A program made the position numbers and the translations under genes. Positions 55,474-61,944 of a stretch of DNA of 64,000 nt are shown here, in pieces; position 1 is the stretch's first letter, and each line of letters opens with the position of its first letter. The stretch is from Filosporella fistucella (taxonomy: Eukaryota > Ascomycota > Leotiomycetes > Helotiales), in the NCBI GenBank assembly GCA_030077755.1, contig JAQJZZ010000019.1, forward strand, positions 1,562,501 to 1,626,500. The letters are read 5' to 3'. The notes beneath the pieces were generated by a model, which did no database searches, had not been told where the DNA came from, and was given only the letters and a program-made list of their open reading frames with translations.

Positions 55474-56882
55474 TTATCTCAAAAAGCTCAACGCACCCAC
55501 GACCAAAGCATCAACCCCCGTACTCAAAGTCGGTTCTATAACCGGTGCAAAAAACGCACTATGATTGATAGGCAACCCATGCAATTTCCCTTCCTTCTTC
55601 GCCTTCTCCCATTTACCCTCATCCGTACCACCAAAAGTCCAATAACAGTACGGCACACCCTTTCCCCCATCTTTCCTCGGTACTTCCGTGGCCAGGATCG
55701 CAAAATCTTCACTCCCTCCCAACGGCGCAGCTTCTCCATCGAATTTATCTCCAAAAAAGCTCTGAAATGCCTCTGAGATATGAGCTGTAGTAGCAGAATC
55801 ATTAATAGTAAAAGGGAACGAGCTTGTCTCCTCCCATTTCGGCTCCTTAGGTGAACCACTAGCATCACACTCCGCCTTGACAATCCTCTTGATAGCACCC
55901 AGAACCCTCTCTCTCGTCTCAGGCGTAACAGTCCTAACATTAATCTTGATAGCCGCCTCGTCAGAAATAATGTTTTCCGTCATCCCACTTTGTACACTCC
56001 CTACTGTAACCACAGCCGCTTCCCTCGGATCTACCTCTCTGGAAACCACTGTCTGTAACCGAACAATAATATGCGCAGCTAGAACGACGGGATCAACCGT
56101 CCTATGAGGCTGTGATGCGTGACCACCTCTTCCATACACCGTGACGCGAAAACTATCTGCTGCGCTGGCGAAAGAACCGCTTTTTGTTCCAACGGTGCCG
56201 GAAGGGAAAGGCATGACATGTTGTCCCAAAACTATATCTGGGATAGGACAAGCGTGCTTCTTTGGATCGTAAAGGCCGTCTTTTATCATGGCTTTTGCGC
56301 CACCTGCTCTCTCCTCGTTTGGCTGGAAGAGAATTATGAGAGTTCCTTTCCATTCTTTCCTGGCATTAGAAAGCGTCGTAGCAGCAGCCAACATGGCTGC
56401 TACATGCATATCATGACCACACTAGGAAGAATTAGCCCTGCATTTCATAATCTCTCAAGTAGCGAGCAGGATCCAAAGTTTTCTGAATCTGGAAACATTC
56501 GCTTTACAGTAATTTTATGATAAGGAAGAAAGGAATGACATACAGCATGCATAACAGGTTTCTCAACCCCATCTTCGACATCGACTTCTCGCTTCTTACT
56601 CGCATACGGTAAACCAGTCAATTCTTCCACAGGTAAAGCATCCGTATCCGCGCGCAAGAGAACAGTTTTCCCTTCTCCATTGGAAAGAATACCGATTAAT
56701 CCTGTGCCGCCGATTGAGGTGCGGACTTCAAAGGAGGGGAGAGAGCGGAGATGATCTGCTGCGGTGGAAGCGGCGAGGTGTTCTTGCAGGGAGAGACCAG
56801 GATTTTGGTGGAGAGTTTTGTAGATATCTTCATAAGAGGAAAGGGAAGGTTTGTGGGTTGAGAGGAGGGTTTTGATATCCAT
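55474..56882 (-). CDS. M20 family amidohydrolase (aminoacylase/IAA-amino acid hydrolase-like)
   Basis: Two exons on the minus strand (56882-56544, 56421-55474), 428 residues. Exon 1 ends at M-H-A and exon 2 opens with C-G-H-D-M-H, so the metal-binding motif M-H-A-C-G-H-D-M-H is formed by splicing. Other family motifs: A-D-T-D-A-L-P (RADTDALPVEE), Q-P-N-E-E-R-A-G-G-A (metal and catalytic Glu), G-R-G-G-H-A-S-Q-P-H, G-G-S-E-D-F and the C-terminal N-H-S-A-F-F-A-P (last metal His). This is the M20D amidohydrolase group, which cleaves N-acyl amino acids such as N-acetyl amino acids or indole-acetyl conjugates using two metal ions. There is no signal peptide, so it is probably cytosolic. Substrate is not predictable from sequence. 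Confidence 0.9.
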
Positions 56883-57490
56883 TTTTAAAATGTGGATTTG
56901 TTTGTGCGTGAGGGGAGTGAAGAAAGAGAATGTTGACCGAGATGGGAATTTAGAGATGATTACGCAATGGGAGTAATGTGTTAAGACGGAAACAATATCA
57001 TATGTTAAGATAAAGGAATACTAGAGAGTAAGAGCTTAACAATATAAGAAGCATCGTCATCTCGACAATCCTATCTAGGAATAGAAGGTCGTTGCGCTAG
57101 AAAAAGTGAAAGGTGGGGGAATGTGGGGAAGGAAGGGGAAGAGGGGTTGGGCAAAGTAGTAGCTTTTGGGAAGTCTGATTCAGAGTAAGATTTATATAAA
57201 AGAGGGGATTTTGGTTGAGACTCAGAAAATATAATTCAAATGATGTAGCTTGAAATGTGCTCACTGTGATGCAAAAAATAAGTTCATCTAGAGACAATAA
57301 TTTCTTACTGTAGCTATTGTTTTTGGAATTGCACAGTGATGGACAGGTCTGGGGCGTCCACATGAGGAGGGATAGGGTTCTGGGCCTCAGGCAGCAGGTA
57401 ATCAGGCTTGACCTTCCATCTCAGCCTGATGCGAGCCCGAAGTGCAACTTAGATTGGGAGTATTGTGCAAGTTCACAACTCAACTTTGGA
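56883..57490. other. Divergent spacer between amidohydrolase and NLR-like gene
   Basis: About 600 bp. The frame of the NLR-like gene is open upstream of 57491 to about 57317 with an internal ATG, so a longer N-terminus of up to 40-50 residues is possible but has no recognisable content. Confidence 0.45.
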
Positions 57491-60400
57491 ATGGGCCTGT
57501 TCGACAAGGCAAAAAGGGCATTAAAGGGATCAAAGGGGTCCAAGAAGGAGGTATCATCACTTTCCGGAATCGTTTCTACCATCGATGCTACAAATTCTAG
57601 GGATCCTCAAAAGTCGATCACGAATAACACGCCAGGCAAGCCAAGTCGTCGTTTAGGCCCCACTGTTTGGAGTCCTGGAACATCACCTATAGTCGAGTAC
57701 GTAATTGTGATGAAAAGAGAATTCTTGGAACAGATGCTGATATGTATGTTTTAGTATTGTGTTTCTGCACGGCTTGACGGGAGAGCCAGAGAAAACATGG
57801 ACTGCAGATAATGCGACCGAGCCATGGCCCAAGACATTGCTGGCTGAGGATATCACAAATGCTCGGATTATCACCTATGGATATGATGCCGATGTCGTAC
57901 ATTGGTTGGAACCGGCTGGTCAAAATACCGTGAGAGAGCATGCCCAGAACCTCGTCAATGATCTGTGTAGTCTCCGGGCGAGGACGAAAACCTCCAAACA
58001 ACCAGTTTTATTTGTGGCACATAGTCTTGGTGGCCTAATCTGCCAGGATGCTTTGCTTCTATGTGTTAATCCCAATGAAGAGGCTCAAGGTGAGCTGCTA
58101 GATTGCACTCGAGGGGTTGCATTCATGGGGACGCCTAATGCTGGATCTGACTTTGAGATGTTTGCTACGGCGGTTGCCAACGTTATCAGCCTCAGTTTTG
58201 TCAAAAAACCAAACACTCAGCTCCTAGAAGTGTTGAAAGGACGCTCGCAAGTCCTGGCAAATATCAAGAATGGCTTCTTGACGATGGTACGAGGTCGAAT
58301 CCGACCAGGACATCCTGAGATCAAGATACATGCTTTTGTTGAGGAGCTTCCCGTCGTTGCAACTGGCCATGTGAGTACTTCTTGATTGAGTGAGACATTT
58401 GTTGATACATTGACCAGCGTGTGGTTGAACCCGATTCTGCCGTTGTACCTGGCTACAATTCTACAACTATCCCAGCAAACCACATGAACATGACAAAATT
58501 TTCAAGCAAGAGTGAAGTTGGCTATGAAAGGGTACTGGGAAGGTTGGTGAGTTGGGTATCATCAATTGAAAATAAAAGCGGTATATGATCCATACGAGCC
58601 TTCGATTGGTGCGGTCTTAATTCGTGATATGTAGAAGGTCCCAACGTGACTGTCACCAGACGAAGCGCTACCAAGGATCTGTCTGTTCAAGAGGCCATGA
58701 ACGATCCTAAATTGGGCAATAAGTATTACTATCGCTATCCCAAACATGGCGACATTATTCAACGTCCTGAGCTGATTTCTAAGATTACTCATCTTACAGC
58801 CCTAGAACCGGAGGTTGGCCCGCGCATATGTATTCTTTGCGGTATGGGCGGACAGGGAAAGACTGCCCTCGCAGCCAATTTTTGTCGTCAAGCTGAAACG
58901 AAACATCTTTTCCTCGCAATCTTCTGGCTTGATGCGTCTTCAGAGGAGGCTCTAAAGAGAGGCTTAGTTGCTATAGCTGATGTCGTCAGAGAGAATGTGA
59001 CCCAGATCTTTAAGTCGAACGACGAGCGAATCGAATTCTCGTTGCGGATGATTGAAAGTTGGAACCGACCGTGGCTACTTGTACTCGACAACTACGATAA
59101 TCCGTCTCGGTTTCAAAACTTGCACAGCTATATCCCGAATGGTTCCCATGGATCGATTTTGATCACTAGCCGTAATTCAAACCTTGGTTCGCTTGGCGTG
59201 GTAGTTGAAGTACCCCCAATCTCGCAAAAAGAGGCCCTTTCTTTGCTTTATAATCGAATCGGGGGCGCCGATAAGTTCCCTGAGCAAGAAGAGTATGCTT
59301 TGAAGATAGTCGAGCTTCTTGGCTATCTTCCACTCGCCATTGATCAAGCTGGAGCTTATATACGCAGACGAGTCAACTTCCAGCTTTCCAGATTCATTGA
59401 TGAGTACGATGAGAAGAAACAGATCATTTGGTCGAGAGCCCCCACAGTATGGGAATACAAAAATGTTGTCTACACAACATGGGAAATGTCATTTGAGCTG
59501 ATTGATGAGGATGAGGATGAAAGGCTTGAAAAGAGTCAGATCCTTACCATGCTCTCGTTTCTCGACTTTCGAAATATCTCTCAAGAGATTTTCAGAATTC
59601 CTCGTCGCTTTGCTGTCGTTCCCGTCGAGATAGCTACGGAACCCCCAAAGTGGTTGGGAGTATGGCTTACAGAAAATGGAGACTGGGATTGGAGCAAGTT
59701 AGAGGATCTTTTCCTCGATTTTAGAGAGCTGTCACTTCTCCAAATGTCACCTCTTGGCCCGTCCACCCTTCGACTTTCGATGCACCCCCTTATTTCGGAG
59801 TGGATCAAATATCGTGCGGATCTCAAGTCAAGGAGGGAGTGTCTCCTGCAGGCCATCGCCATCGTCAACATGTGCCTTCACGCTAAACTCCAAAGCCTCG
59901 AACGGTATTTGATATCTGATGACGCCCAGCAGCAAATTTTTCAGCACAAAGTTTCGTGTACCAAGAATTTGCATGAGCTGCAAAAGATTGACACAGATTT
60001 TCTGAGCAATCTGAATCCATTCGTGGACACTTCAACACAGGCAGACCAACCCAATAACGAGACAATGCTTGTAGAGAACGATACTGGGCAGGAGGCAGCA
60101 CAAAATTTTAACGAAGCAGGCCAAGCACTCCAGGATGACCTGTCCAAGGTATCTTTCAAATTTCAGAGCCTGCTCGACGACGAAAACCTTCAGTACGACA
60201 GCGCGATTCTAAACTGGCTAGCGCCAAATGATTCACCAGGAAAACAGCTATCCCATAATCTATCTGTGGCTCTCAAGGGCACTGGAAGGTGGTTTATCGA
60301 CCATCCAGTCTTTCAAGAATGGGTTCAGGGCATACACCAAGAGCTTTGGTGTTATGGACATGGTTGTATTCCTAATACCCCTACTTTGGATCATCATGCT

Positions 60401-61944
60401 AACCGACTTCTCCTAGCCGGTAGTGGGAAGACAATGATAGCGTAAGCCCAACCGATCTTCTGAGAGCGAAACTACTAAATTACGCTCCTAGTTCACAAGT
60501 CGCAGAATATCTCATTCATCTCCCGACCTCTCCAGTGGTCATCCTGATCTATTGTGACCATAGACACAGAGAGCAACAGACTATCACGAATATTCTTAGG
60601 AGCTTACTTAGGCAGCTCATCCAACAGATCGGCCTGGTTCCGAATGATGTTCGATCTCACTTTGTGCGTGCACAAGATTTGAAAGTCGAGCCAACGTACG
60701 AGATTGTTAAAAGCGCTTTGCTTGATACATTCCGTAGCACTAACAGAAGCATTCACATCATTATCGATGGCCTCGATGAGCTTGAGCCGCATAGTCTGAA
60801 GGTTTACGATGTACTAAAAGAAGGACTGTCGGAATTAGCCAAATCAGCATCTCCGAGAATTCTGGTGACATCGAGGCTTTTCGATGGCCTTGACCTTGTC
60901 AAACTGCAATCTACTACTGCGACGATTAAAATCACGGCCGCCATAAGTGACAGCAGTTTCAGAAGATTTGTCGTGGCAAGCTTGACAACCAACAACGATA
61001 TCAGTCGGACTATCCACTCTTTCAATCCTGAGTTAAAGAAGAAAATAAAAGATATTGTATTGGAAAAATCGAGGGGAAGGTATGTTTTGTGAGGAAGTAA
61101 ATCCCGAATTTTGTTTTGACAGGTGCATAGCTTCTTTCTTGCGAAGTGGTTGGTCGAGGATCTTTCCCGTATCTGTAGGTACAAGCTAAATGAGGAGGAA
61201 TTTGAAAATGCCCTAGAAAGTCTACCTGATTCTATCGACAACATTTATAAGAGAATAATCCGTGTTCAACCGCCGGAATATTTCACTATTGCAAATCAGG
61301 CCCTCCTGTGGTTGGGTTTCAGTCGCCGGGCAATAAGCCTACGGGAGCTACAACATGCAATCGCTGTCAATTTCGTGGAATCTCTATCCGACGTCATCGA
61401 TCGTGAATGGCTAGTCTGGTCGATGGATGTATCGAATTACTGTTCTGGCCTTGTCAGAATTGACGAAGAGGCAGATGTTGCCTCCTTGACTCACTTCAGT
61501 GTCAAAGAGTATCTTTATAGTATCAAGGACGAAGCATTCCCTGGTGCCCATACAAAGATCACGAAAGACTGCCTTACATACCTATCACTAGACCCATTTC
61601 AAAGTGGACCATGTGACGATAAAATTCTCCCGGACTGGCTCCTCGAGTATCCCCTTGCGGTCTACGCAGCCGAGTTCTGGTTTCAGCATGCGAGGGAGGA
61701 TGAATACAAGCTCATGAATGACATCCTTCCATTCCTGAGATCCGCCGGAAAATACAGGTCTTGGGTTCAAATTCTGAAAAGTGTCGGAGAGTCTAAAGCC
61801 AGATATTTAGATTCCCCACTCGAAGACGAACAATTGCTGAGTGTTAAATTGACTGCATGCAGCACTCCATCGGAAGCAGCTAAGCTCCTGAACCTGGACT
61901 TGGTGGCAGCTGCTCTAGCTGAAGGGAGAGATTTTTGGTGGTAA
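57491..61944 (+). CDS. Esterase-NB-ARC-NACHT protein with two STAND ATPase modules
   Basis: Seven exons: 57491-57696, 57755-58370, 58418-58580, 58635-60362, 60417-60441, 60492-61079, 61131-61944; phases close to 1379 residues. Residues 70-300 are a SesB-like alpha/beta-hydrolase: DIVFLHGLTG, nucleophile A-H-S159-L-G-G, GTPNAGSDFE, and a late His in IPANHMNMTKF (about 296). NB-ARC follows: P-loop G-M-G-G-Q-G-K-T (398-405), Walker B WLLVLDNYD (about 480), GSILITSR (about 505), GYLPLAIDQAG (about 560) and a winged-helix-like part. After a linker (SAILNWLAP, GRWFIDHPVFQEWVQG) comes NACHT: P-loop G-H-A-G-S-G-K-T (903-910), Walker B IHIIIDGLDE (about 1005), RILVTSR (about 1038), SFFLAKWLVEDL. It ends with DFWW where ankyrin repeats would normally begin. 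NB-ARC and the pre-NACHT linker share exon 4, so this is not two merged genes. Likely a cytosolic non-self or incompatibility sensor; function is inferred from family. Confidence 0.85.
60417..60441 (+). other. 25-nt microexon carrying the NACHT P-loop
   Basis: Exon 5 of the NLR-like gene. It encodes the A-G-S-G-K-T-M-I core and is flanked by a 54-bp intron (donor GTTGTA, branch CTAAC, acceptor CCTAG) and a 50-bp intron (donor GTAAGC, acceptor CCTAG). Skipping it removes 25 nt, shifts the frame and destroys the second ATPase. Confidence 0.75.

What the first reader, a model, noticed from the sequence alone, without database searches (positions are those of the whole stretch)
57491..61944. One polypeptide with a serine esterase and two complete STAND ATPase modules (NB-ARC then NACHT)
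Seen: a single spliced frame with two intact P-loops (398-405 and 903-910), two Walker B motifs and an intact esterase nucleophile (Ser159). The end of NB-ARC and the whole linker that normally precedes NACHT in ankyrin-type fungal NLRs lie in the same 1728-bp exon, so the join is not an annotation merger. Known: fungal NLR-like proteins usually pair one N-terminal domain with one NB-ARC or one NACHT and a repeat sensor (TPR, ANK or WD40). Inference: here the NACHT module sits where the TPR repeats of a SesB-NB-ARC protein should be, as if one NLR were the sensor of another. The tandem could couple two nucleotide switches to an esterase toxin-like output, or be a recently fused decoy. I know of no described system built this way.
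Basis: partly seen in the sequence, partly recalled or inferred. Interest (0 to 1): 0.88.

Follow-up and report, generated by a model that had tools for sequence, protein, structure and literature searches.

The report
Esterase receptor with two ATPase switches
A fungal gene encodes one large immune-receptor-like protein that carries a lipase-like domain followed by two complete, different molecular-switch modules instead of the usual one plus a repeat sensor, and relatives in other fungi keep the same order, so it looks like an old and overlooked receptor design rather than an accident.

Summary
A seven-exon model at 57491-61944 (+) gives one intact 1379-residue protein: SesB-type esterase (Ser159), NB-ARC module (P-loop 398-405), linker, NACHT module (P-loop 903-910), no TPR, ANK or WD40 repeats found. 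The NB-ARC/NACHT join lies inside one 1728-bp exon. It is not a recent fusion: the same order occurs in Pseudogymnoascus, Phialocephala, Teloschistes and Xanthocarpia, plus ten partial relatives, seven of which show NACHT by profile. The NB-ARC parts form one clade (99 SH-aLRT), the NACHT parts another (99/96). Identity falls from SesB (median 76%) through NB-ARC (62%) to NACHT (37%), as if the NACHT half had the fast-evolving sensor's role. Unexpectedly, the same esterase clade (100/100) also holds ten proteins with another tandem, SesB-NACHT-NACHT-ANK; 13 of its 17 members show two P-loops. Plants have rare NBS-NBS-LRR receptors (BPH18, Pib) with a partial first NBS. My searches of the held library gave no fungal description. 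Best reading: a two-switch esterase receptor whose second STAND module replaces the repeat sensor. The function is inferred. New variant of a known kind.

The parts
57491..61944 (+). whole gene: 7 exons, 1379 aa, SesB esterase - NB-ARC - linker - NACHT - C-terminal region
   Evidence: gene model; full-length relatives
57683..58570 (+). SesB-type serine esterase domain, aa 65-325 (over two introns); Ser159 codon 58023-58025; His297 in NHMNMTKF
   Evidence: SesB trees
58697..59884 (+). NB-ARC module with winged helix and following helices, aa 350-745; the matching part of a relative's model aligns with Apaf-1 residues 116-495
58841..58864 (+). Walker A of NB-ARC, GMGGQGKT, aa 398-405
59075..59098 (+). 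Walker B of NB-ARC, LLVLDNYD, aa 476-483
59885..60277 (+). linker, aa 746-876, wholly inside exon 4; the matching part has low confidence in the model of relative P0004
60278..61134 (+). NACHT (NPHP3_N type) module, aa 877-1110 (over three introns)
60356..60433 (+). Walker A of NACHT, GHAGSGKT, aa 903-910, split by the intron 60363-60416
60363..60416 (+). 54-nt intron inside the NACHT P-loop (GTTGTAT...CTAAC...CTCCTAG); eight truncated relatives lose similarity at the same place
60757..60780 (+). Walker B of NACHT, IIIDGLDE, aa 1002-1009
61135..61941 (+). C-terminal region, aa 1111-1379: winged-helix-like (His1230 kept in 6 of 6) and helical; no Pfam repeat found; alignable to the end in relatives

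Best explanation
A fungal NLR-type receptor with two STAND switches in one chain. Shown by sequence: an N-terminal SesB-type esterase, a complete NB-ARC-WHD module, a linker, and a complete NACHT-WHD module that ends the protein with no detectable repeat sensor; the order is conserved between classes of fungi. Inferred: the esterase is the killing or membrane-modifying output; the NB-ARC half is the Apaf-1-like wheel that clusters it; the NACHT half does the job that TPR or ANK repeats do elsewhere, holding the NB-ARC half closed and letting it open after its own ADP/ATP exchange on binding a nonself or stress cue, or a partner protein. Activation would then need two nucleotide switches in series (a cis version of a sensor-helper NLR pair), which would limit accidental firing of the esterase.
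Against: No expression, biochemistry or phenotype; no ligand. Fast divergence of the NACHT half also fits relaxed constraint; P0005 has lost the NBD2 P-loop and one of the Walker B acids in its model, so NBD2 ATPase may be dispensable, or the model is wrong. The two families compared for rates come from different species sets, and the first NACHT of the control family is itself low (49%). Inter-module placement is not resolved (pTM 0.37). The esterase scores below Pfam's cut-offs.
Confidence: 0.5

Rival explanations
1. The NACHT half is a docking or co-oligomerisation platform: it recruits other NACHT NLRs of the cell into a mixed wheel, so the protein is a hub or helper and not a self-contained receptor.
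For: 33 matches to the NACHT profile in the same genome at E<=0.001, one of them this gene's own NB-ARC part; NACHT Walker motifs kept in 5 of 6; no recognisable sensor at the C-terminus.
Against: The NACHT half diverges fast (median 37%), which fits a sensor better than a shared oligomer surface; no partner known; the genome-wide NACHT search lists no second match inside the window.
Confidence: 0.22
2. The NACHT half is an integrated decoy or an inert spacer that drifts.
For: With the C-terminal region, the lowest conservation of all modules; degenerate NBD2 motifs in P0005.
Against: Walker A and B kept in 5 of 6 and the sensor motif in 6 of 6 sequences from two classes; the C-terminal 270 residues align to the end of the protein; one clade.
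Confidence: 0.12
3. The single reading frame is made into two working proteins, by proteolysis in the linker or by an internal start, so the 'fusion' is a way of co-producing two NLR halves.
For: Poorly conserved linker with low model confidence.
Against: No stop in exon 4; the N-terminal part would lack any sensor and the C-terminal part any effector.
Confidence: 0.08
4. Annotation or assembly artefact: two neighbouring genes merged.
For: A usual explanation of odd NLR fusions; P0006 of Cudoniella looks like such a merger with an MFS gene.
Against: The join is inside one uninterrupted exon, and the same order is found in independent assemblies, including a 1.5-Mb contig of Phialocephala, and in frames of unnamed contigs that reach the start of NACHT.
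Confidence: 0.03

Closest known systems
Fungal SesB-NB-ARC-TPR NLRs (e.g. Pa_2_10340, table seen; L018 in the same genome)
   Same: N-terminal SesB-like esterase followed by NB-ARC
   Different: TPR repeats end the protein; here a NACHT module does. L018 is 34% identical over residues 367-772; its parts lie in adjacent open frames that I did not splice into a model.
Fungal SesB-NACHT-ANK NLRs (e.g. L019 in the same genome)
   Same: SesB-like esterase and an NPHP3_N-type NACHT
   Different: no NB-ARC found between; ankyrin repeats at the end; not spliced into a model either.
SesB-NACHT-NACHT-ANK proteins of Trichoderma, Pseudogymnoascus and Nemania (P0129-P0135, P0137-P0139)
   Same: same SesB clade (100/100) and two tandem NBDs (both P-loops found by pattern in 9 of 10)
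   Different: first NBD is NACHT-like, not NB-ARC; second NACHT groups with single SesB-NACHT proteins (96/93); ANK repeats present in the four scanned. My searches gave no description of these either.
Plant CC-NBS-NBS-LRR receptors BPH18, BPH26, Pib (PMC5041133, abstract and passages)
   Same: two NBDs in one NLR chain
   Different: first NBS partial, lacking ARC parts, P-loops not conserved; LRR sensor retained; four of 480 rice NBS-LRR genes, described there as partial duplications.
Neurospora PLP-1, patatin-NB-ARC-TPR (passage of PMC12881547)
   Same: lipase-type effector switched by an NB-ARC in cell death
   Different: one NBD, TPR sensor, patatin instead of SesB.

Membership tests
Fungal NLR (tripartite STAND receptor) | N-terminal effector-type domain | tested here: met
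   SesB-type esterase aa 65-325, Ser159 and His297 motifs
Fungal NLR (tripartite STAND receptor) | NB-ARC or NACHT with Walker A and B | tested here: met
   both present and over Pfam cut-off; motifs
Fungal NLR (tripartite STAND receptor) | a single central NBD | tested here: not met
   two NBDs of different families with intact motifs
Fungal NLR (tripartite STAND receptor) | C-terminal superstructure-forming repeats (TPR, ANK, WD40, HEAT) | tested here: not met
   none in Pfam at E 0.01 for the whole protein, no family at all for the last exon at E 0.001; undetected divergent repeats cannot be excluded
SesB-like esterase | alpha/beta-hydrolase nucleophile elbow (HSLGG) and distal His | tested here: met
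   HSLGG in 5 of 5 rows that have the region, distal His in 6 of 6; Pfam Abhydrolase_6 and DUF676 below cut-off
SesB-like esterase | lipase or esterase activity | not testable with these tools
   no biochemistry
NB-ARC (Apaf-1 type) module | NBD, HD1, winged helix and HD2 fold (subdomain names recalled) | tested here: met
NACHT (typical) | Walker B hhhhD[GAS]hDE (as worded in PMC12258605) | tested here: met
   IIIDGLDE, aa 1002-1009; 5 of 6 members
Plant NBS-NBS-LRR (BPH18 type) | partial first NBS and LRR sensor | tested here: not met
   first NBD has all motifs and, in the relative's model, its winged helix; no LRR in the Pfam list
Fungal NLR | role in nonself recognition or regulated cell death | not testable with these tools
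   needs a phenotype

The most novel reading that the evidence does not exclude
One esterase lineage in filamentous ascomycetes is tied to two-switch receptors: the sampled members of its clade carry, or are truncated before showing, a tandem of two STAND NTPases, with the first switch being NB-ARC in one branch and NACHT in the other. This would be a distinct class of immune receptor in which one NLR engine is the sensor and safety catch of another within a single chain (an AND gate on a lipase).
Probability: 0.35. Interest if true: 0.8.

Novelty: new variant of a known kind. Interest (0 to 1): 0.62.

Why it matters
NLRs are usually described as one switch joined to one sensor and one output; plants can split sensing and execution over two proteins. 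A conserved chain with two different switches and no repeat sensor lets the sensor-helper logic be tested inside one protein by mutating one P-loop at a time. The tie of one esterase clade to tandem switches hints that this lipase output needs a double lock.

Tried and rejected
Recent fusion or single-genome oddity: rejected by full-length relatives. Annotation merger: rejected. Unfused close parents in the same genome: sought and not found; the best matches elsewhere are 34% over residues 367-772 (C13, L018), 42% over the esterase (C13, L017) and 44% over a short esterase piece (C13, L018); that search scored 34 of 114 candidates. The idea that both tandem architectures inherit the same second NACHT: the free tree puts the second NACHT of the NACHT-NACHT proteins with single SesB-NACHT proteins, but holding it with the window family's NACHT is not rejected (AU p 0.0775), so one ancient tandem with a swapped first switch stays open. 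Family esterases as a clade of their own: P0127 falls beside the NACHT-NACHT group, yet one clade is not rejected (AU p 0.186). My first acceptor for the last intron broke the frame; the next AG restored it with the conserved residues. Solved relatives by sequence: 7 sequences, all matching the NB-ARC half (AfsR, NRC1-3, RPP13-like 4). PADLOC profiles: only weak hits on P0001 and P0003; on P0130 the stronger hits are on its ankyrin repeats. A full-length fold was not tried (1200-residue limit for a single protein); the model is of relative P0004, which lacks the esterase. Rows dropped: SesB pieces under 150 residues, P0005 among them, left out of the SesB tree, and one search used a chosen 41 rows of that set; P0134 left out of the NACHT trees because my pattern did not find its second P-loop; one search used 65 of the single-NACHT rows; one search used 18 hand-picked 'other' rows and left out P0005; one search used the 90 best-scoring NB-ARC rows; P0006 (Cudoniella) left out of A1 and A2. 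All three protein searches scored only the roughly 8000 candidates sharing most words, and searches list only the best 120, so the counts of relatives are lower bounds. The profiles were built from the family itself.
Full report
What is there. The region was read and its frames listed. A seven-exon model on the + strand gives 4140 nt and 1379 residues with no internal stop; all six introns are 47-58 nt, GT to AG (an earlier acceptor for the last intron broke the frame).

Domains. Pfam places NB-ARC at 387-575 (E 6e-16), NPHP3_N at 877-1041 (E 4e-37) and NACHT over cut-off in two stretches; the esterase matches Abhydrolase_6 and DUF676 only below cut-off. The esterase call therefore rests on its relatives and motifs: AHSLGG around Ser159 and NHMNMTKF around His297. 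No repeat family was found in the whole protein, and no family at all in the last exon alone. Exon 4 by itself, with no splicing, matches both NB-ARC and the first 29 positions of NPHP3_N.

Relatives. A search with residues 300-1300 (177 proteins at E<=0.001 among 7993 scored, 120 listed) returned five proteins covering 95-100% of that region: P0001 Pseudogymnoascus sp. VKM F-4517, P0002 Phialocephala subalpina, P0003 Teloschistes cf. exilis, P0004 Wetmoreana brouardii, P0005 Xanthocarpia ochracea. Four of the five carry the esterase in their models (P0005 lacks the part with the nucleophile); P0004 starts at NB-ARC. A profile search (106 proteins at E<=1e-20) added P0121 Gyalolechia marmorata, P0127 Chrysothrix sp. 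TS-e1954 and unnamed, probably metagenomic frames P0122-P0126 and P0128; P0006 of Cudoniella acicularis has SesB and part of NB-ARC only. With profiles built from the family, 12 of 338 proteins (337 fetched plus the window) had both NB-ARC and NACHT; in six of these the NACHT match is only the first 27-28 residues. So of the ten partial relatives seven show NACHT by profile (P0004, P0121-P0124, P0126, P0128), P0125 and P0127 match the linker profile and show the pre-P-loop stretch by eye, and P0006 does not reach it. All eight truncated proteins P0121-P0128 lose similarity after the LWC.G-like stretch and end within 2-13 residues, at the place of the window's P-loop intron, as expected if that intron is shared and was not spliced in those models (inferred from the protein ends, intron DNA not seen). 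Taxonomy look-ups put Pseudogymnoascus and Phialocephala in Leotiomycetes, Teloschistes in Lecanoromycetes and Chrysothrix in Arthoniomycetes; I did not look up the others. P0003, P0004, P0005, P0121 and P0127 are labelled as coming from metagenome-assembled genomes.

Trees. NB-ARC tree, 90 rows: 15 family rows (P0006 included) form one clade, 99 SH-aLRT, with Chrysothrix outermost, then one group holding the lichen proteins and one holding the window with Pseudogymnoascus, Phialocephala and Cudoniella. NACHT trees: 6 family rows one clade, 97 SH-aLRT among 94 rows; 5 rows 99/96 among 37 rows. These fit one old fusion followed by descent, with many losses or some transfer to explain the patchy occurrence (inference).

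A second tandem. Ten proteins (P0129-P0135, P0137-P0139; Trichoderma, Pseudogymnoascus, Nemania) match the window protein at 48-61% identity over 19-27% of it, carry the SesB profile and two NBDs of their own: both P-loops by pattern in 9 of 10 (P0134 shows one P-loop but two NACHT stretches). Of the four scanned with Pfam, three have NACHT in the first place and NPHP3_N in the second, and the fourth (P0129) has two NPHP3_N stretches; all four have GPIID_WHD and ankyrin repeats. In the esterase tree these ten and seven family esterases form one clade holding nothing else: 99 SH-aLRT in 93 rows, 100/100 in 41 rows. Thirteen of the 17 show both P-loops; P0134, P0121, P0127 and P0006 do not, so for these the tandem is partial or inferred. 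The second NACHT of this group sits with five single SesB-NACHT proteins (96/93), not with the window family, but the alternative is not rejected (AU p 0.0775).

Motifs and rates. NBD1 Walker A, Walker B, sensor and GLPL are intact in 7 of 7 rows; NBD2 Walker A and B in 5 of 6, P0005 being degenerate, and its sensor motif in 6 of 6. Median pairwise identity among the window, P0001, P0002 and P0003 is 76 (SesB), 62 (NB-ARC), 44 (linker), 37 (NACHT) and 36 (C-term) per cent. In nine SesB-NACHT-NACHT-ANK proteins it is 74 (SesB), 49 (first NACHT), 57 (second NACHT), 51 (WHD) and 42 (ANK). At about equal esterase divergence, the NACHT half here changes about as fast as the ankyrin repeats do there. 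This is the main ground for giving it the sensor's role, and it could equally be relaxed constraint.

Own genome. Only one copy was found. The best matches elsewhere are 34% (NB-ARC) and 42-44% (esterase) identical. L018 (C13) holds SesB, NB-ARC and TPR and L019 (C4) SesB, NACHT and ANK, each in adjacent open frames that I did not splice, so both single-switch types seem to coexist with the tandem one, but neither is a close parent.

Literature. Dyrka et al. [quoted passage not shown] The 2025 Sordariales survey (PMC12258605, passages and section 13) reports 55 of 4613 NLRs identified as both with close E-values, which it treats as one hard-to-classify NB domain, and describes architectures as tripartite; [quoted passage not shown] In PMC9815663 and PMC12881547 the passages shown for my terms hold no protein with two NBDs. 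Searches for tandem, double or two NACHT, NB-ARC, NOD, NBS or NBD listed no fungal case; one search was swamped by the words 'two stand', and only the top titles of each search were listed. Plants supply the precedent: BPH18, BPH26 and Pib have two NBS domains, the first partial and with unconserved P-loops, in four of 480 rice genes (PMC5041133, abstract and passages); RefPlantNLR lists 488 NB-ARC domains in 479 entries (PMC8559963, passages); one wheat candidate has two NB-ARC domains (PMC10027608, passages). Most subscription papers are not in the library.

Verdict. A real, intact, conserved gene: a SesB-type esterase NLR with two heterologous STAND switches and no detectable repeat sensor. 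The anatomy is near certain; the two-switch mechanism is inference at about even odds.

Noticed in passing
P0129-P0135, P0137-P0139: A second tandem architecture, SesB-NACHT-NACHT-WHD-ANK, in Trichoderma, Pseudogymnoascus and Nemania, with the same esterase clade as the window gene; my paper searches gave no description of it.
   Followed up: partly
L017:531-3710 (G000:C13:2966030-2969209, + strand): One 1060-residue open frame reads SesB-SesB-NACHT-WHD: two esterase domains in a row before one NACHT. A doubled effector in the same genome.
   Followed up: partly
P0005 (Xanthocarpia ochracea), NBD2: NACHT P-loop reads ESPDLGK and Walker B DALNE while NBD1 is intact: either a poor gene model or a natural loss of the second switch.
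   Followed up: no
P0006 (Cudoniella acicularis): An MFS transporter model runs into a SesB-NB-ARC stretch of the same family; looks like an annotation merger.
   Followed up: no
window 57491-57535 and relatives: Proteins begin with MG in 5 of 8 family members and 4 of 10 NACHT-NACHT proteins against 3 of 80 other SesB proteins fetched, mostly followed by a short basic stretch; possible membrane anchoring, untested.
   Followed up: no
window 55474-57020, - strand: Neighbour on the other strand whose frames look by eye like an M20-type amidohydrolase (CGHDMHVAAML); the recognition is recalled, not searched.
   Followed up: no
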